Part shown: positions 7,438 through 27,147 of the stretch, piece by piece
Layout: each line of letters begins with the position of its first letter
Numbering within the stretch: the first letter of the stretch is position 1
Origin: Bacteroidota bacterium
GTDB taxonomy: Bacteria; Bacteroidota; Ignavibacteria; UBA10030; BY39
NCBI GenBank assembly: GCA_030017895.1
Contig: JASEGV010000009.1
Coordinates: 1 to 58,688 of the forward strand
Direction of reading: 5' to 3'
Length of the DNA stretch: 58,688 bases
The notes under the pieces: model-generated
Database searches by the model: none
Told to the model about the DNA's origin: nothing
Seen by the model: only the letters and a program-made list of their open reading frames with translations
Position numbers and translations under genes: made by a program

Positions 7438-8715
7438 TCACTTTCGGTTCAGCATCCACCTGCGTTTTTCTAAAATTATATTCACATCTTTGTCGAGCTC
7501 TGCAAGAGCTTGATTAACGGATATTTTTTGTGCCGATGCCATTTCAGCATACTGTTGAACTTTCATTGCAATTTGTTCCCACTCAGGAATTTTAGGTGTC
7601 GGTACAACGTGCTTGAACTGTTCATAAAAAGCTTTTACATAGACATTGTTCTTAAACAACGTATCGTTCCATGCTTCTTCAACAGCGGGAAGATTACCCG
7701 TTACTTTGTAAAATTCTAACTGCTGTTGCACTGCCGAAAGATATTCTATGAATTTCCACGCTTGTTCTTTCTTCGTCGAGTTGCGAAAAATCACTAAGCT
7801 GGCACCTCCGGCAAGTGAGATTCCCGGCGTATTCTTATCGGGACCGGGTAGCGGTGCTGTCATCCATTTATCTTGAAGCGCCGGCGGCATTCGTTTTTGA
7901 AACTCACTGATATTCCATGGACCTGTAATATACATAGCAAAAAATCCCTCAGCGATTCCCTGATAGATGTTTGTAACTTGCGTAATACCCACAGGCGCGA
8001 GCTTGTTTTGGTAAAATCGCATTATGTACTCAAAAGCTTTTGTAAACTTCTCACCGCTGAAATCGCCATAACGGTTGTCATTTTTCAACAACGTAGAGCC
8101 GTTTTGTAATCCAGCAACAACAAACGGAACCCATTCGTTTGTAGGCAGCAGAACGGCATATTTTTCTATCCCGCCTGCTAACTGTTTAATTTTCATCGAA
8201 GCATCGAACCACTCATCCCAAGTTGCCGGTGGATTTTTGTAGCCCGCCTGTTCTAAAATATCTTTACGATAAAACATTACCCGAGTGTCAACGTACCAAG
8301 GTATGCCGTACGGAATGTCGTCTATAACATTTGTTTCCCATATCCCTTCGAAATATTTTTCCTTCCTGACGATAGAAGAATTTTCAATCCAAGGATTTAA
8401 ATCTTCTATCGCATTCAGGAGTGTGAATTCGGGAATCCAGGTATTTCCGAGTTGTGATACGTCGGGAGTTGAGTTTCCGGCATAAGCTGTAAGTAATTTT
8501 TCGTGAGCGGCGGTCCAAGGTATTGATTGGACTTTTACTTTAATCCCGGGATTTCTTCGCTCAAACTCAGGAATCAGTTTCTGAACATTTTCGCCTTCAG
8601 CACCCATCGCCCAAAATATGAGAACCGTTTCGGATGAAGGTGATGAACGGCAGCTTAATTGTGAGATGGTTATCAACAAGAGCGAGGCAATCAAGTATGT
8701 AACAATTCTATTCAT
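7438..8715 (-). CDS. ABC importer solute-binding lipoprotein (SBP family 1)
   Basis: A periplasmic sugar-binding lipoprotein of 425 residues. The signal peptide ends in a lipobox (SQLSC, lipidated Cys 22), anchoring the protein in a membrane. The extracellular solute-binding family 1 pattern follows: VLIFWAMGAEGENVQKLIPEF, then RNPGIKVKVQSIPW and DVSQLGNTWIPEF. Lipidated binding proteins are usual in Gram-positives but also occur in this phylum. The start codon overlaps the stop of the GH2 gene (TAATG), so they are co-translated. It probably receives oligosaccharides released by the two GH144 enzymes. Listeria innocua has a characterised sophoro-oligosaccharide-binding protein in an analogous ABC system. 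Confidence 0.92.
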   Translation of the reverse strand: MNRIVTYLIASLLLITISQLSCRSSPSSETVLIFWAMGAEGENVQKLIPEFERRNPGIKVKVQSIPWTAAHEKLLTAYAGNSTPDVSQLGNTWIPEFTLLNAIEDLNPWIENSSIVRKEKYFEGIWETNVIDDIPYGIPWYVDTRVMFYRKDILEQAGYKNPPATWDEWFDASMKIKQLAGGIEKYAVLLPTNEWVPFVVAGLQNGSTLLKNDNRYGDFSGEKFTKAFEYIMRFYQNKLAPVGITQVTNIYQGIAEGFFAMYITGPWNISEFQKRMPPALQDKWMTAPLPGPDKNTPGISLAGGASLVIFRNSTKKEQAWKFIEYLSAVQQQLEFYKVTGNLPAVEEAWNDTLFKNNVYVKAFYEQFKHVVPTPKIPEWEQIAMKVQQYAEMASAQKISVNQALAELDKDVNIILEKRRWMLNRK

Positions 8716-11363
8716 TAAGAATTAACAGATTCTAAAAGATTCAATAAATATTGTTGTATTACCGGGTCAACACGGCGATCATAAAGTTGAGAAGGGCGAA
8801 ATCGATTTACTAATCGTCCCCTCAACTGTAAGCGTGAAACAAGTACCTTACCTTTACCGATAGGAATTTCGAACACAGCCAAAGTTTTCAGTTTCAAACC
8901 GCACCGGGCAAATACTTTTGAAACACCGTCGGCTTTAACATCGTGTTGCGAGACAACTTCGCCACCATAGCCACCGTTAAACATTTTCAAATGTTCTTTC
9001 AATATATTTTTCCACAAATGATGTGAATGATCTTCTGCGAAAAGGTACGAATCGTAACCGCCGCGATCTGTATCTGAACGCTTCTCAATTGTCAATTGAA
9101 TTCCGCTGGCTACAGGGACAACGATATTCTCTTCGATTCCATATTCTGGTTCGTTAATAATCAATGTACCGCCCGATTTAATAAATTCTGTAATTTCATT
9201 TAAATTCAATTGATACGTTTTATTCTGTAACGAACTTCGGTCAATAATCAATGTCTTGAATTTACTGAAATCTCCATTAAAAACAATATGAGGTATCGCT
9301 ATCATACTTAAAAAATCAGAAATCTCTCCATCAGCTTCTAACAATCCGAAGGTTATCCCTTTCATTCGTTCTGAAGCTTGTGGTGGATCAAACACGTGAG
9401 CAATTTTCTGACTGTAAGCTAACGACATATTTTTATTACTGGCGAATAATTCTGCCCGGACGTAAAAAGTGCCTGGTTTTGGAGGCATTCTGATGACAAT
9501 TGGATGTTCTACACAACTACTCCCTTCTACAGATACAACTTCATTTTTTTGCCAAAACCATTTTTCATTACCGTCTGTGATGCCGTAGAGTATCTGCCCA
9601 TTTTGCTTTTCGTTGGTATCATTAAATATATAGAGTCGGATTGTGCATTCCTCGTTAACAAAGAAATGCCTATCCCATAATTCTAAACTTAATCCGAACG
9701 GAGAGAATACATTTTTTAAAGATTCAAGTACCGGCTTTGGCTTCAAATCTTTTATACTACCTGCAAACCAATGACCTGTCGGTCCATCATTATTGCTCAA
9801 ATAGACAAACGGCTGAATTGCACGAACACGCATACGGCGGAATAATTCGACTAACTCCTGAGCAAGAAATGATTGATGCCTAATCAACTCTTCTTGTGTG
9901 TAATCTTTTCCGAGCCATCGCTCGATGACATCTTTTGTCAGCGCTGTCGGTTGAAAATTTTTATCCAACCACCACCATAGAAATTCATTTACTACAGAAG
10001 GTGTCGTTGAATGTTCAATTTCTTCTAATGGAACGGTGAAGCCGAATCTGCGTTCATTCAACACCGGACCGAGTGAGTAAATGTATGGATGCTGCTCTAT
10101 AAAATCGACAGATTCCCACGGGCGTGTTGGATCTAGATCTTTCATCTTCGGCACGATTTCTTTCTGGACGACATCATCCGTTGATTCGTTTATCGGGTCC
10201 CAGATAATGATACTCGGATGATTCCAGTTATCTTGTAACCAACGAGTAAATTCTTTAGTGATTTGTTCTTTCGTTCCGGAAGTTGTCCAGAATTGCCACT
10301 CGTTTTGAATTAGTATCCCGTATTCATCCGCAATGTCGTACCATCGGTTGTACATTTGTCCGAGGTGATTTCGGAAAAAATTGAAGTTGTGTGCTTTCGG
10401 AATATCAACCATGATTTTCTTAATCCATTCAGAATTCCATGGGAGTAATACACGGTCAGGGTCGGAAAGAAAGCGATGAAAAGCAATGTTGCCGCCACGT
10501 AAAAATATTTGCTCCCCGTTTAAATAAAAATCGGAGCCTGATATTTTGAATTCGCGCATACCGAAAGTTGTAAACGTTTGGTCAACCACTTCACCTCCAT
10601 CCTCAATGGCAATCTCAATCTCATACAGAAATGGATATTCGGGATACCAGAGTTGCATATAATCAATTGAAATTAAAAGAGTTACACTTGCCTCCGAGTT
10701 TGCCAAAACTGTTACATCAGTTGCAATAATGTTGGAGCTTTGAATTTTAGATTTCTTCTCCAAAATTTTTCCAACAATCCTAACCTCTTTATTTGATGTA
10801 AAACCGTTTTCGATTGTTACTCGAACTTCTGCTTGTTGTGAGTTAATGTGAGGAATAACTTGAACTAATTTAACTCTGGGATTACCCGATAAATTGATAT
10901 ACACATCTCCCCAGATGCCGGGAATATATATTTCTCGTTCTTGGTCTTTGCCAACTGCGCTCTCGAGCGGGAGCGTGTCACGAGAACCCACTCTCACTAA
11001 TAGTTCATTTTCTTTGCCATATAAAAGTGCATCCGTGCAAATGTATTCCTGAGATGTGTAGCAAGCTATGTCGCCGCCGATGTGCTTTCCATTCAGCCAT
11101 ACTTCAGTTCCGGACATCGCCTGTTCGATGGTCAATACAGCAATCTGATATTGATAAGGCTCATCTACGCGAAATGTTTTCCGATACCAGTGATAATCGT
11201 ATGATTGCCAGTTGTATTTTGGATCAGCGCTATCCACAAGAGATGGAACTTGGACTTGATGGTCCCACTTTGATGGTGAACTCTCTTTTTCACCGGGCTG
11301 TATTTCCCAAGAACCGTTGAGAGAGATTTTTTTTTTCGGTTGTTTAAAAAAATTTGTACTCAT
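8715..11363 (-). CDS. Cytoplasmic GH2-family glycoside hydrolase
   Basis: An 882-residue GH2-clan enzyme. It has an N-terminal jelly-roll sugar-binding domain (about 10-165, with HWYRKTF and EVWLNGKHIGG), an immunoglobulin-like domain (about 175-270), and a TIM barrel (about 280-570). Likely acid/base Glu393 lies in NHPSIIIWDPINES and likely nucleophile Glu460 in PSVVNEFLWWW. A C-terminal extension to about 880 follows, including an Ig-like and a glutamine-amidotransferase-like region with SGGTLIINEPEYG. There is no signal peptide, so it acts in the cytoplasm. GH2 is usually beta-galactosidase, beta-mannosidase or beta-glucuronidase. In this locus it more likely acts on short beta-glucosides such as sophorose. 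Its stop overlaps the next gene as TAATG and its start overlaps the previous stop as ATGA. Confidence 0.88.
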   Translation of the reverse strand: MSTNFFKQPKKKISLNGSWEIQPGEKESSPSKWDHQVQVPSLVDSADPKYNWQSYDYHWYRKTFRVDEPYQYQIAVLTIEQAMSGTEVWLNGKHIGGDIACYTSQEYICTDALLYGKENELLVRVGSRDTLPLESAVGKDQEREIYIPGIWGDVYINLSGNPRVKLVQVIPHINSQQAEVRVTIENGFTSNKEVRIVGKILEKKSKIQSSNIIATDVTVLANSEASVTLLISIDYMQLWYPEYPFLYEIEIAIEDGGEVVDQTFTTFGMREFKISGSDFYLNGEQIFLRGGNIAFHRFLSDPDRVLLPWNSEWIKKIMVDIPKAHNFNFFRNHLGQMYNRWYDIADEYGILIQNEWQFWTTSGTKEQITKEFTRWLQDNWNHPSIIIWDPINESTDDVVQKEIVPKMKDLDPTRPWESVDFIEQHPYIYSLGPVLNERRFGFTVPLEEIEHSTTPSVVNEFLWWWLDKNFQPTALTKDVIERWLGKDYTQEELIRHQSFLAQELVELFRRMRVRAIQPFVYLSNNDGPTGHWFAGSIKDLKPKPVLESLKNVFSPFGLSLELWDRHFFVNEECTIRLYIFNDTNEKQNGQILYGITDGNEKWFWQKNEVVSVEGSSCVEHPIVIRMPPKPGTFYVRAELFASNKNMSLAYSQKIAHVFDPPQASERMKGITFGLLEADGEISDFLSMIAIPHIVFNGDFSKFKTLIIDRSSLQNKTYQLNLNEITEFIKSGGTLIINEPEYGIEENIVVPVASGIQLTIEKRSDTDRGGYDSYLFAEDHSHHLWKNILKEHLKMFNGGYGGEVVSQHDVKADGVSKVFARCGLKLKTLAVFEIPIGKGKVLVSRLQLRGRLVNRFRPSQLYDRRVDPVIQQYLLNLLESVNS

Positions 11364-14300
11364 CTTGCGGATTTCAGAATAACGGTTGCCGGCAATGTTT
11401 TAATTTCGATACCGCGCTTGGTCTGCTTTACCTGTTTACCATTAATTTGGACTGAAACAATTGGATTGCTTAAAGGTGAACGGAGAATAATTTTACCGGG
11501 AGGGATTTGTATGTTGCCACCGATTTTTACAATCAAACTTTCGCCAGTTTTTTTCATACTATAATCAATAACACCGTAGTAAGTAGTTAGTTTTTTCACT
11601 TCAATGCCATCCGGTTCGTTCAGCCAATCTTCTGGAATACCCGCTCCGATAACAAGTGAGGTATCTTTCTCTCGCTCATAGGCAAACATACTTCGAACGG
11701 AACGAATAAAATCCGAAGCTACCCACGTGTGCGGCATATCGCCGATAAATCGTGGAGTATTCGGATTTTTCCACACGACTTCCGCCCAATGATTCCACCC
11801 TCTCGGACGCTGGTCTTCAAAAAAGAAATTCAGCAACTCGTGTGCGCGTTGTTTCTGACTCATAAAAACATAAGCACCGATTATACGAACTTCATAAGGA
11901 GTGTAATTCAGCCAATCAATTTTACCGTCGCGCCTGTCGGTAAAGAATTTGTAATAACGGTCGAATGTATTGATGAGTTGCGGTTCGGGAATATTGCCCA
12001 ACTCGCCGATAGGATTTACACCAATAGCAGTTGAAGTGGCATCGAAATCACCAAGCTCAACACAACCGGGGATGTAATCAATATTTTTGTTTTGCATCGC
12101 AAGCCGCATCGAAGCGTATAAACAAATCTGAAAATCATCTGTTTCAGAGTTGAATTCCTTTTCAATATTTTTCTCACCCAAAATTTGTGCGATAGCAGTC
12201 GCATCTTTAAGCCCGCGCAATACCCAGAAGTCGTCCCAGTACGAGTGCATCGGTTTGGCTGAGTAACCCTCGTGGCTTATGGATTCGGGAACCAGACCAA
12301 ACATAGCTCGTTGCTCTGGCGTGCCATATTTGAAGTCGTCAGTTTTACGTTGATTGCGGAGGAATTGTATATACCTGACTGCTTTTGTAATATTATCAAA
12401 CTTTCCGCGTAACCAGATCGTGTCTTTTGTGAAATGAAAATATTGCATTACGAGATAAATAAATTCACCGTGACTGTCGTGCTCAGGAACCGGGTCAGCG
12501 CCGCGAGAATCGACAACGCAAGGAATTTTTCCATCGGGGAATTGGTACTTTGCATACCAATCTATATATTCACGCACTTCATCTGTTATACCCATATAGA
12601 GAAGCGCTGAGGAAGTTAGCGCCCCATCTCTTATCCAAGACCGCTCGTACGAACGAGAACCGGGTTGAATAGCCGGTCCATCCCGGTTTATCAGTATATA
12701 AGCAATATTCGATTTCAGTGTGTTTACAACTTTCTCGGCTGATTTGGGAAGTTTAAATTCAACCGCACTAAGTTTAGTTTCCCAAAATTTCTGAGTTTTA
12801 TCCAACAATTCTATTGCTAATGATTTTGCCGAAGTGTCATCCTGATTAGTTCTGAAGTTCGTCAGTTTCTCGTCGAATGGAACAATCAGAGAGTTATCCT
12901 TCGAACTGCCGGATGGTAGAGCCAGGTCATATTCGAATGCAGCAGATGCATAACCGAAATGATCGGTGATATTACGAGTAGGTGGAACTTCTCCACGAGA
13001 AATAAATGATGTTATATCGCCTTGGTCAAATTCTGCCGCACCGAAAGCGTTATGGGTCGAGAGAGATAACACTTGCGTTACATCGTTAACTGTAGCTATC
13101 CCATTAGAATACTTTATTGAACGAATATTTGCCGTCCCGCCCACCATATTCAAATCTTGCGATGGCGGATTAACTTGAAATGGACGTAATGTAACAAATA
13201 ATTTCCCATCAACCAGCATATCGCTTTTATTCTCTGCAGTGTAATTGACAATCAATACCGGCTTCCCCTCTACATTGGCGGCAAATGTTGTTGTCTTCAG
13301 AATGAAATCATTATATTTCCACTCGACGATAGGAATCGGCAGGTAGCTGCGGTCGAGCGATTGCGTAATGCTAACTTCATTCCAAGTAATAAATTTACCG
13401 TTGAGATATAAGAATGGTTCGAGCGAAAAACTCGCTTTATCAACCTCTATCATTCCCTCTTCATTTATCATTGCTTCCTTCGTATCGCCGCTAACGCCGA
13501 CAATAGTCCAATACGACATTTGATTGGAAAAATATTTTGGAAAATATCCTCGAGGTGCGTCACTTGCAACTGTTATGATAAATGCATTTGGTGACGAACC
13601 GAACTCTACACTTTTCACATCAATATTTCTGATGCCGTAGTTTTTGTTGTTGATGCTCTTCTTTAGATTCAATCTGAGAAAACGAGTTTCCGCCTCAGGT
13701 AAATAGATATAATCGCGGTCTCCATTCCCACTCGTTACTCGATAGACCGTCGTCCAATTTTTTCCATCATCCGAAAAGGCAACATCATACTGCTCTGCAT
13801 ACTTTTCCTTTTCCCAGTCAATCACCATTCCACCAAACTCACGATCCTCTTGAAAATCGATAACCAACCACTGTTGTTCCGACTGTCCGCCGCTCATCCA
13901 AATTGTTGTATTATTTGCATCAATCGCAAATTGGGGTGAAGAATTTTTTGCGAATGAAGAAGCAGTTGCAACCAGTTTTAAGTTTGGTGTTGCTTCAGTA
14001 ATTGGTTCGATTTTGAATTCATCAATGTAAATTGTTCCCTTACCGCCGCCTGTTCCGGCAGAGACGACAAACTCAATTTTATCTACATCTTTTATTTTAC
14101 CACCGCCGGAAGGTCCCCAAGCAAAAGTAATATGTCGCATCTTGATTGTTCGCTTAGTCCATTCTTTTGAAAATTCAACATTCAGTTTCTTGGTCCAAAA
14201 AACGTTGCCTGCTGTGTCGAGCAGCTTAAATTCAAAATTATTTACCGGCGCATCACCTCGAAGATAAAATGTAAATTTATAATTTTCCGGCAAAAGAAGT

Positions 14301-14524
14301 TTGAGCCTCTTTTGAGCAATTGCATAACCTGAGCCGTGAAATTCAAATTGAAGCGCAAGTCCTTTTCCGCTATAACCTTGTGTTTGAGTGATATTCATCG
14401 AAGCGCCGTCGGAGACGATGGGCATCCAATATTTGATGTCTTCGTAATCATCGAGGACTCTCACTTGTGTAACCGCCGGATTCAGCAACAGGAAGAGCAA
14501 CACAATTAGTTTTATGATTTTCAT
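11360..14524 (-). CDS. Secreted discoidin-domain six-hairpin glycosidase, specificity unknown
   Basis: A 1054-residue exported protein with signal peptide MKIIKLIVLLFLLLNPAVTQ. A jelly-roll carbohydrate-binding-like domain (about 25-165, DDYEDIKYW to IYIDEFKIEP) is followed by an F5/8 type C (discoidin) domain (about 180-300, with FAIDANNTTIWMSGG and WLVIDF). Next come a beta-sandwich linker and an (alpha/alpha)6 barrel (about 600-960). The barrel has SYERSWIRDGALTSSALLYMG, DSRGADPVPEHDSHGEF and HSYWDDFWVLRGL. Acidic residues in WIRDG, EHDSHGE and PGCVELGDFDAT are candidates for catalysis. I chose the ATG at 14524 because it starts the signal peptide, has GGAAGGA upstream and overlaps the previous stop as ATGA. 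No named GH family was recognised with confidence. It may remove a side group or act on oligosaccharides in the periplasm. Confidence 0.8.
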   Translation of the reverse strand: MKIIKLIVLLFLLLNPAVTQVRVLDDYEDIKYWMPIVSDGASMNITQTQGYSGKGLALQFEFHGSGYAIAQKRLKLLLPENYKFTFYLRGDAPVNNFEFKLLDTAGNVFWTKKLNVEFSKEWTKRTIKMRHITFAWGPSGGGKIKDVDKIEFVVSAGTGGGKGTIYIDEFKIEPITEATPNLKLVATASSFAKNSSPQFAIDANNTTIWMSGGQSEQQWLVIDFQEDREFGGMVIDWEKEKYAEQYDVAFSDDGKNWTTVYRVTSGNGDRDYIYLPEAETRFLRLNLKKSINNKNYGIRNIDVKSVEFGSSPNAFIITVASDAPRGYFPKYFSNQMSYWTIVGVSGDTKEAMINEEGMIEVDKASFSLEPFLYLNGKFITWNEVSITQSLDRSYLPIPIVEWKYNDFILKTTTFAANVEGKPVLIVNYTAENKSDMLVDGKLFVTLRPFQVNPPSQDLNMVGGTANIRSIKYSNGIATVNDVTQVLSLSTHNAFGAAEFDQGDITSFISRGEVPPTRNITDHFGYASAAFEYDLALPSGSSKDNSLIVPFDEKLTNFRTNQDDTSAKSLAIELLDKTQKFWETKLSAVEFKLPKSAEKVVNTLKSNIAYILINRDGPAIQPGSRSYERSWIRDGALTSSALLYMGITDEVREYIDWYAKYQFPDGKIPCVVDSRGADPVPEHDSHGEFIYLVMQYFHFTKDTIWLRGKFDNITKAVRYIQFLRNQRKTDDFKYGTPEQRAMFGLVPESISHEGYSAKPMHSYWDDFWVLRGLKDATAIAQILGEKNIEKEFNSETDDFQICLYASMRLAMQNKNIDYIPGCVELGDFDATSTAIGVNPIGELGNIPEPQLINTFDRYYKFFTDRRDGKIDWLNYTPYEVRIIGAYVFMSQKQRAHELLNFFFEDQRPRGWNHWAEVVWKNPNTPRFIGDMPHTWVASDFIRSVRSMFAYEREKDTSLVIGAGIPEDWLNEPDGIEVKKLTTYYGVIDYSMKKTGESLIVKIGGNIQIPPGKIILRSPLSNPIVSVQINGKQVKQTKRGIEIKTLPATVILKSAR

Positions 14525-15912
14525 TTTCCTTCCAACCATCCACCTTTGAAACCGGCACGCTTCAATCCTTTGATGATGTACTGATTTTTTTTCATTACAT
14601 TCCACACAAAACTGTTCCTGTAATTTTCAATCATTATTGCGATTGGACCTTGATCGATTCCCAGATAATCGTTATCGAACCAACCGTTTGGATGCTGTGG
14701 CGTTCGATAAGTCGGATTGAACGCATCTATAAAACCATACTTTCGGAATACGAGATTGTCATATTTATTTCTGAGTGCTTTTAATGTGGGAATGCATATT
14801 TCAGGGGCAAAAGGAATCGAACCAGAGGAGGCGGTTGGCGCGATAGTTCCGTCGTCGTTCGTCCAATCTATCGATGGTCCCCGAGCGGCATATCCTTCAA
14901 ACTTTCTTCTTTTACCATCAATTATAAAGGATGTATCTTTTGGCCCGTCGCAAGCGGTGAAACCCCAGATTGTGTCTGAATAATCTTTGAACTTGCCGGG
15001 GTTTTCTTTTGCGTATGCTTGCTGCGAGTAAGTTGCGCGACGAGAATTCTCGAAGTAATCAATTCCTTTTCCCTTCATATACTCATCTTGAATCCCCTTG
15101 AAATCTATCCAACAATGTGAAAACTGATGACCGAAAAGGGGTGCGAAGCTAATGAATTCATATCCATAAAACTTTGCCCAAAGATATGGTTTCGTCCAGG
15201 CATCCCAAACACTTTCGGGAACAGAGTAGGTTGGAGAGCCGAGCGCAAGAATGTAGAGAATCATCGCCTCATCATAGCCGTCCCAGATATCCGAATGGAA
15301 TCCACGCTCTGGTGTCCAACCGAGAGTAATCCCGTTTCTTCCAGCCATTGCCCATTTCCAATCAACTCTGCGATAAAGACTATCAGCAAGCTGACGAATT
15401 TCTTTTTCAATGTTCTTATCTCGATCAAAATAAGTTTGACAGAAAAGCACGCCAGCCATAAGTAAGCCGGTATCGATTGTGGATAGTTCGCAATTCCAGG
15501 TTCGCTTACCATTTTTGATATCAAGGAAGTGATAATAGAATCCTTTATAGCCGCTTGCGTCCGGCTTTTCACTTTGTTCAAGACTCAAAAGGAGTCGAAT
15601 TGTATTCAATACCCGTTGTGCCGCTTGATAGCGAGTGATGATGCCGCGCTCAAAAGAAATTGGATATGAAGTTAGTGCGAATCCGATTGCTGCAACACTC
15701 GAAGGTGAAAACGATGCGGGCCAACGGTCGGGAGTTAAACCTGTAGTGGAATCTGTAACGTCGAGAAAAAATTGTAGTGTGCGACTTTGAAGTGTATCGA
15801 GAAAAGAATCCCATTGAAATGGATCATCGGTTGACTTGATTTGTTGGCTACATCCAATTGTAACGAATATTATTTGGATTAATATTATTATGATATTATT
15901 TTTAGTTTGCAT
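14521..15912 (-). CDS. GH144-type endo-beta-1,2-glucanase, lipoprotein form
   Basis: A 463-residue lipoprotein with a lipobox-like TIGC near residue 21. The body is the glycoamylase-like (alpha/alpha)6 domain of family GH144, whose characterised member from Chitinophaga pinensis cleaves linear beta-1,2-glucan to short sophoro-oligosaccharides. Segments conserved with the paralogue at 16221-17795 include GYKGFYYHFLD, ELSTIDTGLLMAGVLF, GYDEAMILYILALGSPT, FGHQFSHCWIDFKGI, ENSRRATYSQQAYA and WGFTACDGP. It ends without a sorting domain, so it should stay membrane-anchored and act in the periplasm or at the outer membrane. It is the first gene of the downstream group after the palindrome array. Family name is firm; exact product size is not. 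Confidence 0.88.
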   Translation of the reverse strand: MQTKNNIIIILIQIIFVTIGCSQQIKSTDDPFQWDSFLDTLQSRTLQFFLDVTDSTTGLTPDRWPASFSPSSVAAIGFALTSYPISFERGIITRYQAAQRVLNTIRLLLSLEQSEKPDASGYKGFYYHFLDIKNGKRTWNCELSTIDTGLLMAGVLFCQTYFDRDKNIEKEIRQLADSLYRRVDWKWAMAGRNGITLGWTPERGFHSDIWDGYDEAMILYILALGSPTYSVPESVWDAWTKPYLWAKFYGYEFISFAPLFGHQFSHCWIDFKGIQDEYMKGKGIDYFENSRRATYSQQAYAKENPGKFKDYSDTIWGFTACDGPKDTSFIIDGKRRKFEGYAARGPSIDWTNDDGTIAPTASSGSIPFAPEICIPTLKALRNKYDNLVFRKYGFIDAFNPTYRTPQHPNGWFDNDYLGIDQGPIAIMIENYRNSFVWNVMKKNQYIIKGLKRAGFKGGWLEGK

Positions 15913-16220: not shown

Positions 16221-17795
16221 TCACTTAATAAACAACATCCTTTTTGTCTGTACACCTTCACTCGTATTCAAACGATATGTATATACACCGCTCGGAAATT
16301 TTGCCGCATTCCATTCCACAGATTTATACCCGGCATCTTGGATTCCGTCAACCAATGTTGCAATTTCTTGTCCCAACAGATTAAATATTTTTAAACTAAT
16401 GTATCCTCTTCGGGAAATATAATATCTAATAACTGTATTAGGATTGAACGGATTCGGATAATTCTGAAAGAGCATGAAATCCGAAATCGATACTGAAGGT
16501 TCATTCACATCGGTTACGGGTTCAAAACCTGCACGATGCAGTCCGACTTGAATGTATGGATTATTCATAAAACGATTCCAAACAGATTGAGTCCGATAGT
16601 TTTCTATCATCACGATTATCGGTCCTTGGTCAATGCCGATTACATCAGGACCCCACCAATTCACTTTTAGATTGAAAGCATCTCGGAAACCGTAGTTTGT
16701 CCAGAGTTGAGCGCGGTACGTTTTGTACAATTTATGAGCAACTGCAAGAGATTGTTCTGGAGTAAATGGTATTGAACTTAAAGCAGCAGTCGGTGTTATT
16801 GTTCCGTCGTCGTTAAATGCCGGCGGTGCACCACGGGCTGCGTATCCTGTTGGTCCGTCAGAAGCAGTGAGTCCCCAAACAGAATCGCTGTAACCGTTAA
16901 AGTTTCCCGGATTGTCAATGCAGTAAGCACGCTGAGCCAAAGTTGCACGGCGCGAGTTCTCAAAATAATCTATACCTCTCCATCGCATATAGGCATCGCG
17001 TATATTTCTGAAATCAACCCAGCAGTGCGAATACTGATGTCCGAAAAGGGGTGGGAAAGGGATGTAAGAATATCCGTAGTATGTTTCCCACGTATAACCG
17101 CTCGTCCATGCCTGCCAGGCGGTTGTGGGAACAGGTTTGGTTGGCGAGCCTAACGCAAGAATATATAAAATCATTGCTTCGTTGTAGCCAACCCAATACC
17201 CCATAGTACCGAATTGAGTTTCGGGCTTCCATTCCATCATAATACCGCTGCTAAAGTTACGCATCCAATTCCAATCGACACGGCGGTAGATAGAATCAGC
17301 ATACGCACGGATGAGAGTTTCTATCGAGTCAGTTCCAGTAAAGTACTGCTGTGCGTCTAAAATTCCTGCTAACAACAACCCTGTATCGATAGATGATAAC
17401 TCAGAATTCCAAGCCCGAGTTGCAGTTGTCATATCCAGGAAATGATAGAAGAAACCTTTGTAACCGATTGTACCTGATGCAGCGCTTCCCTGTGGCTTTT
17501 GCCAAAAAGTTTTAAGAGTCGTCAGCACACGGTCTTTTGCGGCTTCTCTTGCAACCCAACCTCGATCAACACCAACACAAATTGCCGATAGCCCAAAACC
17601 GACTGATGCGATGCTTGATGGCGACCAGGAAGTATTGCGGTCTTTTATCAGTCCATTCGAAGGATTGGCTTCGTACCAGAAAAAACGGAAAGCCGAATGT
17701 TGAAGGGAGTCTAACAGCTCATCGTCACTTTGGGCAAACAAGTTTGGTGATAAAATAAAATTGATAAGAAGAATTAAAACGAATGATTTCATCAT
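16221..17795 (-). CDS. GH144-type endo-beta-1,2-glucanase with C-terminal sorting domain
   Basis: A 524-residue secreted paralogue of the 14521-15912 product. A cleavable signal peptide (ending about LFAQ, residue 22) precedes the GH144 domain (about 24-420), with GYKGFFYHFLD, ELSSIDTGLLLAGILDA, GYNEAMILYILALGSPT, FGHQYSHCWVDFRNI and WGLTASDGP. A C-terminal sorting domain of about 80 residues (QNYPNPFNPNTVIRYY to the end, KRMLFIK) predicts export by a type IX-like system and display on or release from the cell surface. This is the likely first enzyme to cut the polymer outside the cell. Its start follows the GH94 stop directly. Two copies with different anchors suggest sequential outer-surface and periplasmic cleavage. 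Confidence 0.9.
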   Translation of the reverse strand: MMKSFVLILLINFILSPNLFAQSDDELLDSLQHSAFRFFWYEANPSNGLIKDRNTSWSPSSIASVGFGLSAICVGVDRGWVAREAAKDRVLTTLKTFWQKPQGSAASGTIGYKGFFYHFLDMTTATRAWNSELSSIDTGLLLAGILDAQQYFTGTDSIETLIRAYADSIYRRVDWNWMRNFSSGIMMEWKPETQFGTMGYWVGYNEAMILYILALGSPTKPVPTTAWQAWTSGYTWETYYGYSYIPFPPLFGHQYSHCWVDFRNIRDAYMRWRGIDYFENSRRATLAQRAYCIDNPGNFNGYSDSVWGLTASDGPTGYAARGAPPAFNDDGTITPTAALSSIPFTPEQSLAVAHKLYKTYRAQLWTNYGFRDAFNLKVNWWGPDVIGIDQGPIIVMIENYRTQSVWNRFMNNPYIQVGLHRAGFEPVTDVNEPSVSISDFMLFQNYPNPFNPNTVIRYYISRRGYISLKIFNLLGQEIATLVDGIQDAGYKSVEWNAAKFPSGVYTYRLNTSEGVQTKRMLFIK

Positions 17796-20183
17796 TTACT
17801 TTCCGAGTGTAATTTTTATGGTGTGTGTTGAACCAACTTCAAAAACCGGAAGAACATTTTTAAGTTCAGCTGTTTTAGAATCATAAGGATTTCCATCAAT
17901 CAGAATTTCTTTAACGCCGTATTCGACACTTGATGGATTGCAGACTTCAATCAAATAAGTTGCGCCGCGAAACTTTCGTTTAACAGAATATTTTTCCCAC
18001 GTTTTAGGAATGCAAGGGTCAATAATCAATCCTTCAAAAGTAGCCCTGATGCCGAGTATCCAATCGAGCGTAACCTTGAACAACCATGAAGCAGAACCTG
18101 TGTACCACGTCCAACCGCCGCGACCGTAAAACGGAGATTCAGGTCCTTCGATGTTACCCGGTGTAACATAAGGTTCAGCTACATATTCGTCGGGTCTGAG
18201 TCCTCTGTTAATCGGATTAATTTTTGAAAACATCCGGTAAGCTTCGTCAGCGCGTTTAAGCAAAGCTTCTGCAACAACCGCCCATGTAGCTGCGTGTATA
18301 TAAACGCCCCCGTTCTCACGCAGTCCGGGCGCATAGCGAGTAAGATAACCGATGAATGTATCTATAGTTTTGTATGCCGGATATAAAAGTAGAGGTCCTG
18401 TTTTATACCCAAGCTCTTTTTCAACCATATCCATTACCTGGTTTGCCCGATCATCGTCAGCAACCTCAGCAATAACCGACCAAGTCTGAGCATTTAGAAA
18501 AATTTTACCTTCAGTATTTTCATTGCTGCCAATCTTTTCGCCTGAATCTTTTGTCGCACGGTAATACCACTCGCCATCCCAACCAAGATTATTTAATTTT
18601 TCTTTTAATAATTTTGCCCGTTCAAGGTATGTTTTTGATTTTTGAGTATCACCATATCGCGAAGAAATTTCTGAGAAATCAATAAGTATCCGGTGAATAA
18701 AATGACCAAGCCAAACGGACTCGCCTTTCATATCAAGCCCCACAGCGCTCAAGCCGTCGTTCCAGTCGCCGCCGCCAATCAATGGCAGACCTCGTTCGCT
18801 GAACCTTTCGAGCGCCTTGTCAATTGCAAGGACACAATGATCGTAAAGTTTTACAGGTGTTGCATCATCTACAAAAGGTTCTTTACAATCGAGAATTGAA
18901 AAATCGTTAGTCTCTAAAAGAAAATTGTTAACAACGAACGGCATCCAAAGTAAATTATCTGAAATTTTTGATTTCAGGCCGATTTCAGAAATCGGATGCC
19001 ACCAGTGATAAACCGTTCCGTCCTTAAACTGATGCCTGGCATGAAGCAGAATTTGTTCTTTGGTTTTTTCAGAATCAATTGGAAGGAAGATTTGACTGTC
19101 CTGCAATTGGTCTCTGAACCCGAAAGCACCTCCAGTCTGATAATAAGCTGTTCTTCCCCACATCCGTCCGGAGATTGCCTGATACTTCAGCCACGAGTTC
19201 ATCATAATGTTCATCGCATCGTCGGGAGTTTGAACTTCTACCGTGTTGAGAAGTTCATTCCATCTTCCCCGAACATTTTGAAAAGCTTCATCGACATTAT
19301 TAATGGAAGAATATTTTTTAATTAAATCGTGAGCTTGCAGTTGTGAGTCGGCAGCGCCGAGTGTAAAAACAATTGTGATTTCTTCTTTAGGCCCGAGTGA
19401 AATGTTATTTTGGAGACTACCAATAGCATCGAACATATTACCGCATTTTTTATGGAGCTTTCCTTCAGTAACCGCTTCAGGATTGCTCAACGAGCCGTAG
19501 TTGCCGAGAAAAGATTCTTTATCACAATCAAAAGAAGCGGGTTTAATGTTAGACGAGTGAAAAGCAACATAAGCCCAATCGGCATTCCAATGGCCTCTTT
19601 CAGCTGGAATTTCCCACATCCTTTTTGTAGCGAAGATTGCGTTTTCGTCAAACTTTGTTTCGATAAAAGTTTTGTGGAATTCCCTATGCCAGTCGGGCGA
19701 TGCGCCAAGTCCCCACTCAAAATAAGTAAATGTTCGAAGCCGGCGTGGACGCCGAGTTTTGTTTTTAATAGTAAGCTTCCAAATTTCAAGCGGTTCGTTG
19801 TTCGGAACGAAGACAAGCAGTTCAGTCTCTATTCCGAAATTCGTAGAATTGATTTTAGTATAACCGATACCGTGATGACATGTGTAAGAGTCCGGTTCTC
19901 TACAAACCGGTTTCCATCCCGCCGACCAGATATTACCTTTCTCATCCCGCAGATAAATATACTTTCCCCAATCATCTTTAATTAAGTCTTGCTCCCATCG
20001 TGTGATTCTGTTTAACTGAGCGTGCGTGCGCCAGCTATAACCGCTGCCTGTTTGTGAAATTGTAATTCCATAATCACCGTTACTGATTACATTTATCCAA
20101 GGTCGGGGTGTTCTTGGTGTATTGATGATATATTCTTTTCCGTCCGGAGAAAATTTTCCGTACTTAGTAGCAAATTGTTTCAT
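17796..20183 (-). CDS. GH94-family glycoside phosphorylase (cytoplasmic)
   Basis: A 795-residue member of GH94, enzymes that cleave beta-glucosides with phosphate to give alpha-glucose-1-phosphate. The N-terminal beta-sandwich (TPRPWINVISNGDYGITISQ, GYSWRTHAQLNRITRW) resembles the GH94 part of cyclic beta-1,2-glucan synthases and 1,2-beta-oligoglucan phosphorylases. The (alpha/alpha)6 barrel carries GFRDQLQDS and GDWNDG at residues 472-477, the region of the catalytic Asp. No signal peptide remains after choosing the ATG at 20183; the longer frame to 20294 overlaps the barrel gene and lacks GH94 similarity. The length equals cellobiose- or chitobiose-phosphorylase types and is shorter than known 1,2-beta-oligoglucan phosphorylases (about 1,100 residues). 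The exact substrate is therefore open; sophorose or short sophoro-oligosaccharides are favoured by context. Confidence 0.9.
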   Translation of the reverse strand: MKQFATKYGKFSPDGKEYIINTPRTPRPWINVISNGDYGITISQTGSGYSWRTHAQLNRITRWEQDLIKDDWGKYIYLRDEKGNIWSAGWKPVCREPDSYTCHHGIGYTKINSTNFGIETELLVFVPNNEPLEIWKLTIKNKTRRPRRLRTFTYFEWGLGASPDWHREFHKTFIETKFDENAIFATKRMWEIPAERGHWNADWAYVAFHSSNIKPASFDCDKESFLGNYGSLSNPEAVTEGKLHKKCGNMFDAIGSLQNNISLGPKEEITIVFTLGAADSQLQAHDLIKKYSSINNVDEAFQNVRGRWNELLNTVEVQTPDDAMNIMMNSWLKYQAISGRMWGRTAYYQTGGAFGFRDQLQDSQIFLPIDSEKTKEQILLHARHQFKDGTVYHWWHPISEIGLKSKISDNLLWMPFVVNNFLLETNDFSILDCKEPFVDDATPVKLYDHCVLAIDKALERFSERGLPLIGGGDWNDGLSAVGLDMKGESVWLGHFIHRILIDFSEISSRYGDTQKSKTYLERAKLLKEKLNNLGWDGEWYYRATKDSGEKIGSNENTEGKIFLNAQTWSVIAEVADDDRANQVMDMVEKELGYKTGPLLLYPAYKTIDTFIGYLTRYAPGLRENGGVYIHAATWAVVAEALLKRADEAYRMFSKINPINRGLRPDEYVAEPYVTPGNIEGPESPFYGRGGWTWYTGSASWLFKVTLDWILGIRATFEGLIIDPCIPKTWEKYSVKRKFRGATYLIEVCNPSSVEYGVKEILIDGNPYDSKTAELKNVLPVFEVGSTHTIKITLGK

Positions 20184-20187
20184 GTAT

Positions 20188-21192
20188 TTAAAAAGATAAT
20201 CCGATTGAAAACCGTTGAACACTTTCCAAACGACCATAGTCATTCCAAGCGTAATCCATTTTAAATTCATAACCACCGACGTCGAAATAAACACCGGCGC
20301 CTAATGTTAAACCTACTTCCGAATCTTGTTGAAAAAGGTTTTGATAACCGCCTCTAATAGCAAAAGTATTTCTGAACATCCATTCAGCGCCAAAACTAAT
20401 ACTCTCTGTGTTATCGTTCGGGTGAAAAGCATCAACAGCAAGTTGGAATTTATGATAATTTCCAATTTGTAAAGGCATACTTACACCTACACGGAAAAAC
20501 ACGGGTAGTGGGAATTCTTCTGTAAAAAATTGTCCAGGTAGAGCGCTATTGTCTCCATATCGTGTAGGATCTTTATCGAACTGAATACGCAAATCATCGC
20601 CGGAATATTTTGCCCTTGTACCGAAGTTTGAAATACTTGCACCAATGTGCAATCCATCCGGTGAGAGACGATAAATAGTTCCGACGTTGATAGCAAACGC
20701 AGAAAGAGAACTATGCCATATCATCTCCTGTATATACGTTACCTGAATGCCGGCAGAAAATCTATCCGAAATTTGTTTGCCGTAGCCAAGCCCTACTGCA
20801 AAATTTGATACCGTATAATGTTCACCCGTTCCGAGTGGCTGCGACACTGTTCTAACCTCGATCTCACCCAAATTTAATGATGTTACACTCGCAAAAAGAT
20901 TTCCCCACTCACCGGGTTGAATCGAAACTGCCGCATAGTTATAAGCTATGTCAGCGAGCCAGACACTATGTGTGAACTGAACTTGATAACCCGATAGCAT
21001 CCCTATTGCACCCGGATTATAATAAGCAGCAGAGACTTCGCCGTACATCGACGAACCTGCATTTCCCATTGCTGAAACGCGAGCGCTCGGTTCTATGAGA
21101 AGGAATTGACCTACAGTTGTTCCAGTCTTTGTTTGGCAATATGATGTCTGAAAAAATATTAAGACAAAAAATAATTTTAAAATCTTTTTCAT
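20188..21192 (-). CDS. PorV/PorQ-family outer-membrane barrel
   Basis: A 334-residue outer-membrane protein with a signal peptide (about residues 1-19, ending SYCQ). The start of the mature part, TTVGQFLLIEPSARVSAMGNAG, is the family signature (EPSARxxAMGxAG), followed by AAYYNPGAIG and amphipathic strands ending in FSIGLSF, a typical barrel C-terminus. PorV and its relatives are shuttle or outer-membrane components of type IX secretion and of surface attachment. The position four bases upstream of the GH94 frame and 14 bases after the sorting-domain protein gene suggests it handles the sorting-domain cargo encoded here. It could equally be a dedicated transport barrel. Confidence 0.85.
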   Translation of the reverse strand: MKKILKLFFVLIFFQTSYCQTKTGTTVGQFLLIEPSARVSAMGNAGSSMYGEVSAAYYNPGAIGMLSGYQVQFTHSVWLADIAYNYAAVSIQPGEWGNLFASVTSLNLGEIEVRTVSQPLGTGEHYTVSNFAVGLGYGKQISDRFSAGIQVTYIQEMIWHSSLSAFAINVGTIYRLSPDGLHIGASISNFGTRAKYSGDDLRIQFDKDPTRYGDNSALPGQFFTEEFPLPVFFRVGVSMPLQIGNYHKFQLAVDAFHPNDNTESISFGAEWMFRNTFAIRGGYQNLFQQDSEVGLTLGAGVYFDVGGYEFKMDYAWNDYGRLESVQRFSIGLSF

Positions 21193-24483: not shown

Positions 24484-27147
24484 TTAATCGTAATAAATTG
24501 TTAAACCTATCTCAATCCTGCGAGGTGGATAGAAGCGAGTTGGGTTTGCTAACATAGCCCGGTCGCCGATCGGATTGAGAGAATAATCGGGATTGCCAGT
24601 ATCGGAGAAAACAAAACCGTTTGCAAATTTTGTATCGAACAAGTTAAAAACTCGGAAAAATACGCTGATCGGAAACCCGCTGAAAGTAAAGAATTTTTCA
24701 CCGCGTAAATCTACAACTAAATGATTGGGTTTTCGACCTGAGTTTGCCTCAAGTCCTTGGCCGAATCCAGCACCGATAGCCGGTGTATATGGTTGTCCAC
24801 TACCTAATCGTGAAACAGCGCTGAAAGAAAAATTCTTAGGATCCTGTAACATAACTGTGAGATTTAAAGTGTTCCGCTGATCCCAATTAAGTGGAACCTG
24901 TCTGGGTCTTGGGTCTTCGCCTGCAGCAGCTCTTGTGGCTGTCTCTCGTGGGTCGCTTGAATTGCCCTGCGCCATTTGCCAGGTATAATCTAATGATGTG
25001 CTTAAAAGTCCAATTCTTCGTTGATCTAAAGAAAAAGTAAAACCTATCACATTTCCAAAATCAACATTAGTTAAGCGGGCATATTCTGCGGCAGTATAAG
25101 TGGAGATGAACTCTACACCAAGTAGGTCTCTGATGTCTTTGTAGAACACACTGATGTCCATACCAAGGAAGTCGGTTAATTCGTTTTTATAACCAAATTC
25201 ATATTGAATTGTTCGTTCGGGTTTTATATCGGGATTCCCGAGCACACCGTAGCTAACACCACCCGCTTGTAATTCTTTTAAAATTGTGTAATCGGAATTA
25301 GTGAATATTTGACCCAAACCCGGCAACTGATAGAAATGTCCATAAGCAAAAAAGAGAGCAGACCGTGTTGTTATCGGATACGACACACCCAACCGGGGTG
25401 CAACTGTGATTTTTTTTGTTGCTTTTATTGGATATGATTGTGGCGCACCCGCGATATTATTTGCCGGGTTTTGCAAATCGCTCGGGATAGTTGCGCGTGA
25501 GTCGAAATATTCCGAACGAGCGCCAAACCTAAGTGTAAGGTCTTGCCATTCAATTTGATCTTGTGCATAAGCCGAGATAGATAAAGGACGATAAAGCAAT
25601 ATACCAGGATATTCCGGCGGTTGTGAGAATTTAGGCCTCAGTACCATTACTCCGCCTTCGGTAGTTTGGAGTATATATCCGGGCGATCCAAACTCGACAT
25701 TCGAATACTGCAGCTCAACTCCAGCTTTGAGTTGGTGGTCGCGGGTTACCTGACTTGTAACGGATGCCTTTATTACATAAGTGTTTGTCTGTTGCTTGAA
25801 GCGACTTAAATCGACTCCTTGTATAACTGCACCTAACTCGTATGTTCCATCCGATTGTGGGGGACCCGCATCAATATAGCGCGGGTCGAAAACATCTTCA
25901 TAGACATAGTCAGTATATTTCAAATAATTTTGTCGCACGCCAATGTTGTAGAATGTTGAGTTAGAAAGTGTGTGCGTAACATCGATACCGTGCACAAGCG
26001 AAAATGTCTTCTGTGTAGGAGTACCATCGGGGTTTAGCCGCCAAGCAAAATTTGTACGCTTTGCTTCAATAAAATTTAGAATTGCTTGATAACTTATATT
26101 AAAATGTGCTACAGGTTTGTTTGTAATTTTAGCAAGACCCGACCATTCATTCGAATATCCTAAAGGTACTTTACTTTGATCGCCTGTCGGTGCAAAAATC
26201 TTTTTTTCAAAATCGGAACTATCAGTCGGGATAAAACGCCTTGTTCCATAAAAGTAATCATTACTGATAGATCGACGAGTATTGAATAAGAAATAGGTCT
26301 TTGGAATAGGTGTCGGTCCGCTGATTGCTATTTGGTAATTTTGAAGTGATAAGGGTCTGAGTTTGTAATCTATTAGTCGTTTGGTACTACCGGGATACAG
26401 AAAATCACCGGTATATAGTTCTGCATTCCATTTAAAATCTTCGGTTCCACTTTTTAGTACAGCATTTACAACTCCACTCATCGCTTGACCGTACTCCGCA
26501 TCAAAAGTACCGCTAATCACCTGGACTTCTTGCAGCAACGATCGGTCAAGTCGCAGTATTGAAGTGTTATCAAACGAGTTGTTAACCGTTACACCGTTTA
26601 CCTGGTATTGAACTTCACCCTGTCTTCCACCACGAAAGTGCCCGTCCACAACTCCTGCTTGCAGGTTTACTATATCGCGGATTTCTTGAACCGGTAAAGC
26701 TTGGATATCGTCTCCGGAAAGCGAAACCATAGAGCTCGTCAGATTGATATCAACGATTGGTTTTTGGGCAGTTACTAATACAGTTTTTTGTTCGAGCACG
26801 GTTTCTTCAAGCGCAGCGTCCAATTTCGTTGTCTGGTCAGTAGTTATCAGAACATCCTGTACTATTAGGGTTTGATAACCGACCAAACTAAATTGAATTC
26901 TGTATTTACCCGGCGGGATATTATTGACATTATAATAACCTTCAATATCGCTTGAAGCGCCGAGAGAGGTGCCTACAATTTGAATGTTGGCACTTGGCAG
27001 CGCTTCATTAGCTTGACTGATAACTCGGCCTGAGAGTTTTCCGGTAGTCCCTCCGTTCAGATTACCTGAGAAAAAAATTAGTAGCATAAATGGAATGACT
27101 AACAAAAAATAAAGATTCGTTCTTAAAAACTTGAAACTGGTTTGCAT
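24484..27147 (-). CDS. TonB-dependent outer-membrane receptor, no SusD partner
   Basis: An 887-residue outer-membrane active transporter. A signal sequence or membrane segment (about 12-32) is followed by a carboxypeptidase-regulatory-like domain (about 36-115, GRVISQANEALPSANIQIVG, GYYNVNNIPPGKYRIQF). Next come the plug (about 125-240, KPIVDINLTSSMVSL, QVNGVTVNNSFDNTS, FDAEYGQAMSGVVNAV) and a 22-strand barrel region ending RRIEIGLTIYYD. It resembles SusC-type receptors in domain order, but no SusD gene lies in the window. The CBM9 proteins upstream may supply glycan binding. It should import oligosaccharides made by the surface GH144. A hairpin separates it from the gene upstream. Confidence 0.9.
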   Translation of the reverse strand: MQTSFKFLRTNLYFLLVIPFMLLIFFSGNLNGGTTGKLSGRVISQANEALPSANIQIVGTSLGASSDIEGYYNVNNIPPGKYRIQFSLVGYQTLIVQDVLITTDQTTKLDAALEETVLEQKTVLVTAQKPIVDINLTSSMVSLSGDDIQALPVQEIRDIVNLQAGVVDGHFRGGRQGEVQYQVNGVTVNNSFDNTSILRLDRSLLQEVQVISGTFDAEYGQAMSGVVNAVLKSGTEDFKWNAELYTGDFLYPGSTKRLIDYKLRPLSLQNYQIAISGPTPIPKTYFLFNTRRSISNDYFYGTRRFIPTDSSDFEKKIFAPTGDQSKVPLGYSNEWSGLAKITNKPVAHFNISYQAILNFIEAKRTNFAWRLNPDGTPTQKTFSLVHGIDVTHTLSNSTFYNIGVRQNYLKYTDYVYEDVFDPRYIDAGPPQSDGTYELGAVIQGVDLSRFKQQTNTYVIKASVTSQVTRDHQLKAGVELQYSNVEFGSPGYILQTTEGGVMVLRPKFSQPPEYPGILLYRPLSISAYAQDQIEWQDLTLRFGARSEYFDSRATIPSDLQNPANNIAGAPQSYPIKATKKITVAPRLGVSYPITTRSALFFAYGHFYQLPGLGQIFTNSDYTILKELQAGGVSYGVLGNPDIKPERTIQYEFGYKNELTDFLGMDISVFYKDIRDLLGVEFISTYTAAEYARLTNVDFGNVIGFTFSLDQRRIGLLSTSLDYTWQMAQGNSSDPRETATRAAAGEDPRPRQVPLNWDQRNTLNLTVMLQDPKNFSFSAVSRLGSGQPYTPAIGAGFGQGLEANSGRKPNHLVVDLRGEKFFTFSGFPISVFFRVFNLFDTKFANGFVFSDTGNPDYSLNPIGDRAMLANPTRFYPPRRIEIGLTIYYD

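What the first reader, a model, noticed from the sequence alone, without database searches (positions are those of the whole stretch)
17796..20183. GH94 phosphorylase of unusual type in a beta-1,2-glucan locus
The N-terminal pattern resembles the GH94 part of cyclic beta-1,2-glucan synthases and 1,2-beta-oligoglucan phosphorylases, yet the length (795 residues) is that of cellobiose- or chitobiose-type enzymes; known 1,2-beta-oligoglucan phosphorylases are about 1,100 residues. It could be a compact enzyme specific for sophorose or short oligomers, a specificity I do not know to be described.
Basis: partly seen in the sequence, partly recalled or inferred. Interest (0 to 1): 0.65.

Follow-up and report, generated by a model that had tools for sequence, protein, structure and literature searches.

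The report
Compact beta-1,2-glucan phosphorylase gene
This gene very probably makes a small enzyme that uses phosphate to cut glucose units off beta-1,2-linked glucose chains inside the cell, in a short two-partner form of a reaction so far known only from larger enzymes; the gene cluster it sits in has already been sketched in print, but the enzyme itself seems untested.

Summary
The gene is real and lies on the minus strand (17796-20183, 795 aa). [quoted passage not shown] It does not group with cellobiose or chitobiose phosphorylases (the clade-plus-cellobiose grouping is rejected, p 2e-93). Of 53 relatives examined, 52 or 53 carry each acceptor-site residue that binds beta-1,2-linked glucose in the solved enzyme LpSOGP; 0 of 30 other GH94s do. 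Its genes travel with GH144 beta-1,2-glucanases: 48 of 54 loci with enough downstream sequence, against 0 of 20 controls. Unlike LpSOGP and CGS, it has a single N-terminal domain with the recognition helix of dimeric GH94s, so it should work as a homodimer. Best reading: a compact, dimer-type 1,2-beta-oligoglucan phosphorylase that trims imported oligosaccharides of three or more units to glucose 1-phosphate plus sophorose. A 2022 paper already noted such a homologue (IALB_1177) in Ignavibacterium album, without an assay in the parts read. New variant of a known kind, of moderate interest.

The parts
17796..20183 (-). GH94 phosphorylase, 795 aa; supersandwich 26-276, (alpha/alpha)6 catalytic domain 308-711; proposed catalytic acid D476; proposed +1/+2 residues Q349, A353, R622, Y694; phosphate-side Y628, H630; partner-subunit helix 164-173 (HREFH 166-170)
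16221..17795 (-). GH144-type endo-beta-1,2-glucanase homologue with a T9SS sorting tail; N-terminal signal peptide by eye; starts directly after the GH94 stop
   Evidence: (XCC2207 8xul E 8e-120; endo-beta-1,2-glucanase 5gzh E 4e-64)
14521..15912 (-). second GH144-type protein; lipoprotein-like start by eye
11360..14605 (-). 1081-aa secreted protein with F5/8-type C domain and a large unassigned C-terminal part; recurs in 22 of 80 related loci
8715..11363 (-). GH2-type hydrolase, 882 aa, no signal peptide by eye; candidate for sophorose cleavage
7438..8715 (-). ABC transporter solute-binding protein, related to Lin1841 of Listeria innocua
   Evidence: 5ysb, E 2e-77
6517..7434 (-). ABC permease
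5702..6625 (-). ABC permease
20188..21192 (-). PorV/PorQ family outer-membrane protein, ends 4 bases before the GH94 start
24484..27147 (-). TonB-dependent receptor, candidate importer of oligosaccharides across the outer membrane
29181..32399 (-). CBM9-repeat protein with T9SS tail
32441..33478 (-). LacI-family regulator, candidate regulator of the cluster

Best explanation
A cytosolic inverting GH94 phosphorylase of the beta-1,2-oligoglucan type in compact, dimer form. Secreted GH144 enzymes would cut beta-1,2-glucan outside the cell, the TonB receptor and ABC transporter would import the pieces, and this enzyme would use phosphate to release glucose 1-phosphate from the non-reducing end, with D476 as acid. 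The acceptor chain would sit in an open +1/+2 site (Q349, A353 in a short loop, R622, Y694), so the preferred substrates are chains of three or more glucoses and the end product is sophorose. The helix carrying HREFH 166-170 of each subunit would close the pocket of the other, doing in trans what the duplicated N-terminal domain (Ndom1) of LpSOGP and CGS does in cis. Shown here: family, placement, residue conservation, gene neighbourhood, single N-domain with helix, confident fold. Inferred: linkage specificity, chain length, dimer, direction in the cell.
For: Sequence and tree: best PDB hit is the CGS GH94 domain. The clade is one group (95*). One branch separates clade plus CGS plus 1,127-1,177-aa proteins from 30 other GH94 rows (100*). 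With references added, CtCBP and VpChBP fall in their own groups (100* each) and clade+CBP is rejected, p-AU 1.9e-93. Residues (columns of A2): Q349 in 53 of 53 clade, 7 of 7 CGS/long, 0 of 30 other GH94; A353 in 52 of 53, 7 of 7, 0 of 30, with the loop 9 residues in 53 of 53 and 7 of 7 but 12 in 30 of 30; R622 53/53 and 7/7 but Lys 30/30; Y628 53/53 and 7/7 but Phe 30/30; Y694 53/53 and 7/7 but 0/30. LpSOGP uses Q621, A626, R916, Y922, Y1004 there (PMC5309861 passages); the two SOGP rows found here show the same letters. Locus: GH144 catalytic-domain hit in 48 of 54 named loci with 6 kb or more downstream, 61 of 80 in all; 0 of 20 control regions; 14 of 17 same-phylum genomes. Within 6 genomes holding both kinds, GH144 lies by the clade gene and not by the other GH94 in 6 of 6. 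Binding protein related to Lin1841. Only GH94 gene in its genome, hence no CGS. Fold: pLDDT 94.9, pTM 0.94; closest by Z to dimeric enzymes, CtCBP 52, VpChBP 48.8, against CGS 42.8 and LpSOGP 36. CGS N1 carries a similar helix motif, CGS N2 lacks it, the clade's single N-domain has it.
Against: No activity was measured here or found in the papers searched. The closest folds by Z are cellobiose phosphorylases, not LpSOGP. By sequence LpSOGP is not found at all (E up to 1), so the residue match to it rests on an alignment at about 15% identity. Where the clade sits relative to the root is open: grouping it with the dimeric GH94s instead of CGS is not rejected (p 0.22). The dimer is inferred, not modelled. 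The genome has no GH1, no GH35 and one GH3 that is a beta-lactamase fusion, so nothing proven is left to deal with sophorose except the GH2 protein or this enzyme itself. 6 of 54 loci with room lack a GH144 hit at the cut used; one of them, L165, has a divergent one.
Confidence: 0.78

Rival explanations
1. A sophorose phosphorylase: same linkage, but the partner helix fills the +2 site so that the disaccharide is the main substrate and glucose plus Glc1P the products.
For: Disaccharide-size, dimer-type GH94 architecture. HREFH 166-170 unchanged in 53 of 53, a helix that in dimeric enzymes shapes the acceptor site. No GH1 or GH35 in the genome and the only GH3 is a beta-lactamase fusion, so using sophorose here would close the pathway.
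Against: The +2 residues of LpSOGP, which has no activity on sophorose, are kept. A cytosolic GH2 gene in the same operon could cut sophorose.
Confidence: 0.17
2. An ordinary disaccharide phosphorylase (cellobiose, chitobiose or cellobionate type) that happens to lie in this cluster.
For: Length; closest solved folds by Z are cellobiose phosphorylases.
Against: Tree and AU test; five marker columns differ in 30 of 30 other GH94 rows; conserved linkage to GH144.
Confidence: 0.03
3. A synthetic enzyme: it builds beta-1,2-oligoglucans from glucose 1-phosphate as a store or osmolyte.
For: GH94 reactions are reversible (stated for SOGP in PMC11842490, passage).
Against: The operon has glucanases, importers and a LacI-type regulator, which fits uptake and breakdown; no synthase.
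Confidence: 0.02

Closest known systems
[quoted passage not shown] tumefaciens 8rf0/8rf9; Brucella Cgs)
   Same: Nearest solved relative by sequence; same acceptor-site letters Q, A, R, Y, Y and HWW motif; known phosphorolysis of beta-1,2-glucan (PMC3960220, PMC10901819 passages)
   Different: There it is part of a 2,800-residue membrane synthase with a duplicated N-domain; here a free 795-aa protein with one N-domain in a breakdown operon
[quoted passage not shown] EC 2.4.1.333)
   Same: Same predicted reaction and matching +1/+2 residues; works beside a related binding protein and sugar importer
   Different: About 1,110 residues, monomer, two N-domains, very distant sequence, no SOGP_2nd Pfam domain here
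IALB_1177 of Ignavibacterium album (PMC8861115)
   Same: GH94 gene in a cluster with two GH144, a Sop-binding-protein homologue and an ABC transporter; called a homologue of the CGS SOGP domain, expected to release sophorose
   Different: Its sequence was not held here, so orthology is inferred from cluster content; that cluster has a GH35 (IaSGT), this genome has none and a GH2 instead
Cellobiose and chitobiose phosphorylases (CtCBP 3qde, VpChBP 1v7v)
   Same: Size, fold, single N-domain with recognition helix
   Different: Separate tree groups; longer Arg-bearing loop at subsite +2, Lys for R622, Leu for Y694

Membership tests
GH94 | supersandwich plus (alpha/alpha)6 catalytic domain above Pfam cut-offs | tested here: met
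   PF06165 280 bits, PF17167 390 bits; fold Z 52 to CtCBP
GH94 | catalytic Asp and subsite -1/phosphate residues (LpSOGP R630 D631 W758 D760 E917 H924) | tested here: met
   R357 D358 W474 D476 E623 H630 unchanged in 90 of 90 rows; D476 aligns with the Asp of CGS printed as D2528 in PMC11842490
SOGP (EC 2.4.1.333) | acceptor-site residues Q621, A626, R916, Y1004 | tested here: met
   Q349, A353, R622, Y694
SOGP (EC 2.4.1.333) | extra N-terminal domain (Ndom1 plus Ndom2), about 1,100 residues | tested here: not met
   one supersandwich stretch, 795 aa; no SOGP_2nd hit
SOGP (EC 2.4.1.333) | phosphorolysis of beta-1,2-oligoglucans of DP 3 or more, none of sophorose | not testable with these tools
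   needs the purified enzyme
CGS | fusion to the GT84 and cyclisation domains | tested here: not met
   free 795-aa gene between other genes; single GH94 match in the genome
cellobiose phosphorylase | groups with CtCBP in a tree | tested here: not met
   p-AU 1.9e-93
chitobiose phosphorylase | groups with VpChBP in a tree | tested here: not met
   VpChBP group 100*, clade apart
dimeric GH94 architecture | single N-domain with recognition helix that would reach the partner | tested here: met
   helix 164-173 in the model; present in 53 of 53 clade rows, shortened in CGS N2
dimeric GH94 architecture | homodimer in solution | not testable with these tools
   no complex prediction was available

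The most novel reading that the evidence does not exclude
A homodimeric, sophorose-competent beta-1,2-glucan phosphorylase lineage that keeps the unduplicated N-domain, found across several phyla, from which or beside which the self-contained phosphorylases of SOGP and CGS arose by domain duplication. It would take beta-1,2-oligoglucans all the way down to glucose without a beta-glucosidase.
Probability: 0.17. Interest if true: 0.62.

Novelty: new variant of a known kind. Interest (0 to 1): 0.42.

Why it matters
It gives a compact route to Glc1P from beta-1,2-glucan and a small scaffold for making beta-1,2-oligosaccharides. The LpSOGP authors proposed that a domain duplication turned a dimeric enzyme into a monomer; this clade is a natural test case, with the beta-1,2 acceptor site but without the duplication. 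It also shows that annotation of about 800-aa GH94 proteins as cellobiose phosphorylase would be wrong for a group spread over several phyla.

Tried and rejected
Considered and rejected: cellobiose/chitobiose type; membership in SOGP proper (extra domain missing); CGS fragment (no second GH94 in the genome; neighbours intact).

Tried without result: LpSOGP could not be reached by sequence search, so two SOGP genes were found through Pfam PF21250, a number recalled and confirmed by the tool (2 of 291 genomes; 0 of 3 genomes). A two-chain model and further PDB sequence searches were not possible under the caps. The root of the tree stayed open.

Rows dropped: for the marker census I used 37 of the 80 named loci plus the window and 15 of the other 17 same-phylum clade hits (L015, near copy of L014, and L025, partial, left out); 39 named loci had been picked, and L124 (unknown residue) and L128 (a stop inside) were dropped from these. 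The tree left out 14 rows (near relatives, the two SOGPs and two very distant rows); the tree used 37 of those 67 rows plus three references and the two distant rows. L043 and L044 are near copies but are counted as two of the 17. The first locus count with whole GH144 proteins was redone with catalytic parts only, because two of the 20 control regions had hits of 88-132 aa, which I take to be the sorting tail; with catalytic parts they vanish.

Full report
WHAT IS THERE. The frame is on the minus strand. From the ATG at 20183 it gives 795 codons and stops at 17796; the plus strand of the same stretch is closed. The gene starts 4 bases after the PorV-like gene 20188-21192 ends, and the GH144-type gene 16221-17795 begins on the next base after its stop. 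Pfam finds the GH94 supersandwich and catalytic domains. An orthologue 92% identical differs mainly at third codon positions, dN 0.037 and dS 0.30.

WHERE IT BELONGS. [quoted passage not shown] the solved 1,2-beta-oligoglucan phosphorylase LpSOGP is too distant to be found by sequence. In 296 genomes of the phylum, 59 have a match to the query: a group at 51-68% identity and about 800 aa, CGS proteins of about 2,900 aa at about 40%, proteins of 1,127-1,177 aa at 38-39%, and other GH94 proteins of about 800 aa at about 30-40%. A tree of 67 rows puts the query group on one branch (95*), and the query group with CGS and the long proteins on one side of a branch from all 30 other GH94 rows (100*). 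Representatives of the other groups match solved enzymes: L074 cellobiose phosphorylase (1126 bits), L081 chitobiose phosphorylase (1182 bits), L076 the Blautia GH94 8bou (784 bits), L056 nothing close (480 bits to CtCBP). With the reference sequences of CtCBP, VpChBP and CGS added, each falls in its expected group, and holding the query group together with the cellobiose group costs 167 log units (p 1.9e-93). The place of the root is not settled: query group plus all dimeric GH94 is only 2.8 units worse (p 0.22). So the data show that it is not a cellobiose or chitobiose phosphorylase, but not that it descends from CGS.

THE ACCEPTOR SITE. The LpSOGP paper (PMC5309861; passages read) names the residues that hold sophorose at subsites +1 and +2: Q621, small residues G623 and A626, R916, Y1004 and others, and says that an Arg (R343 in VpChBP, R362 in CgCBP) fills this place in disaccharide enzymes. 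I checked that position 343 of the copied VpChBP sequence is Arg and 168 is Gln. In the alignment the query reads YYQTGGAFGFRD, CGS FYQSSGAFGFRD, the two SOGP rows LEQPGGAAWGTRD and LEQSSGAAWGTRD, CtCBP YFESGIGRGMGFRD, VpChBP FIEVGGRTGLGYRD. Counts over 53 rows of the query group, 5 CGS, 2 long and 30 other GH94: Q349 53/53, 5/5, 2/2, 0/30; A353 52/53, 5/5, 2/2, 0/30; loop length 9 in 53/53, 5/5, 2/2 and 12 in 30/30; R622 53/53, 5/5, 2/2, Lys in 30/30; Y628 53/53, 5/5, 2/2, Phe in 30/30; Y694 53/53, 5/5, 2/2, none in 30. Catalytic D476, W474, E623, R357, D358 and H630 are in all 90 rows. The +1 residue R907 of LpSOGP lies in a loop of another length, and I assign no counterpart. The alignment to SOGP is at about 15% identity, so the match there is suggestive, while the match to CGS (about 40%) is firm.

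ONE N-DOMAIN, NOT TWO. LpSOGP is a monomer with two N-terminal domains; the first sits where the partner's N-domain sits in the dimeric enzymes, and the authors proposed a domain duplication (PMC5309861). In CGS and the long proteins the first domain (N1) carries a helix motif HPxFSxxFxQT in 5 of the 6 rows printed and the second (N2) has lost that stretch in the 4 rows printed; the query group has a single domain that keeps it as HREFHKxFIET (HREFH in 53 of 53). The predicted model (pLDDT 94.9, pTM 0.94) has a helix at 164-173 and resembles dimeric enzymes most: CtCBP Z 52.0 (771 residues, 2.0 A), VpChBP 48.8, cellobionic acid phosphorylase 47, CGS 42.8 (742 residues, 2.2 A), LpSOGP 36. A homodimer with shared pockets is the natural inference; no two-chain model was made.

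THE LOCUS. On the same strand lie two GH144-type genes (best PDB for the first: XCC2207, E 8e-120, and the characterised endo-beta-1,2-glucanase 5gzh, E 4e-64), a secreted F5/8-type C protein, a GH2 protein, a solute-binding protein with two permeases, a TonB receptor, PorV-like and CBM9/T9SS proteins and a LacI regulator. The binding protein's best PDB match is 3uor (394 bits) and the second is Lin1841 of Listeria innocua, E 2e-77. PMC8861115 (passage) says the binding protein of the Listeria SOGP cluster binds beta-1,2-oligoglucans; that this protein is Lin1841 is recalled. The genome has one GH94 and two PF10091 genes, all in this cluster, so there is no CGS. A GH144 hit lies in 14 of 17 same-phylum loci, the other three being at contig ends or on short contigs, and a GH144 catalytic-domain hit in 61 of 80 named loci and in 48 of the 54 with at least 6 kb downstream. 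The named loci include KSB1, Limnochordales, Bacillota, Elusimicrobia, Caldithrix and Neomarinimicrobiota (titles). In 20 regions around other GH94 genes of the phylum there is none. Six genomes (G014, G019, G093, G184, G263, G267) hold both kinds, and GH144 is by the query-type gene only. In other loci a GH35 with a GLMA domain (L120, L138, L165) or a GH3 (L129, L138, L162) is present; the window's genome has no GH35, no GH1 and one GH3 fused to a beta-lactamase domain. Other beta-glucosidase families were not searched.

HOW IT PROBABLY WORKS. Shown: family, placement, residues, neighbourhood, fold. Inferred: glucans are cut outside, oligosaccharides imported, and this enzyme, which has no signal peptide by eye, removes glucose as Glc1P from the non-reducing end. 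Because the +2 site appears open, chains of three or more should be used and sophorose left, as in LpSOGP. The GH2 protein, also without a signal peptide by eye, is then the best candidate for sophorose. The rival, that the dimer form takes sophorose too, is kept at 0.17.

WHAT IS IN PRINT. PMC8861115 (section 19 and passages read) describes the I. album cluster with two GH144, a GH94 (IALB_1177) called a homologue of the CGS SOGP domain and expected to leave sophorose, a binding-protein homologue and the GH35 enzyme IaSGT; no assay of IALB_1177 is reported in the parts read, and a search for the name found only this paper. 'Sophorose phosphorylase' found 0 papers. The 2022 review PMC8950772 (table passages) lists characterised GH94 enzymes; in the passages seen, the beta-1,2 entries are Brucella Cgs, LiSOGP and LpSOGP. 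The library is open-access only, so a paper elsewhere could have been missed. The kind is known; the compact, dimer-type form with the beta-1,2 acceptor site is what is new here.

Noticed in passing
window 11360-14605 (-): Secreted 1081-aa protein with an F5/8-type C domain and a large C-terminal part that matches no Pfam family (only 30 bits to TIGR01577); homologues in 22 of 80 related loci. Possible undescribed hydrolase of beta-1,2-glucan loci.
   Followed up: partly
window 8715-11363 (-): GH2 protein without signal peptide by eye, 42-55% identical copies in several same-order loci and a different GH2 (22-26%) near the GH94 gene in others; candidate beta-1,2-glucosidase.
   Followed up: partly
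L088 1319-4849 (-), L060 1530-4964 (+) and others: Free proteins of 1,127-1,177 aa with the duplicated N-domain, nearest to the CGS C-terminal part rather than to LpSOGP: perhaps a second, long type of free beta-1,2-glucan phosphorylase.
   Followed up: partly
L056 1284-3695 (-) and nine relatives; L051, L052: Two GH94 groups of about 805 aa; L056 has no close solved relative (480 bits to cellobiose phosphorylase); L051/L052 not searched against PDB.
   Followed up: no
window 36902-38881 and 39069-40637 (-): Two neighbouring GH18 proteins; the second carries a weak secretion-tail match.
   Followed up: no
window 29181-32399 (-): Protein of near-identical CBM9-like repeats (four by eye) with a T9SS tail; a weak Pfam match to a Tc-toxin receptor-binding domain on it is most likely chance.
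   Followed up: no
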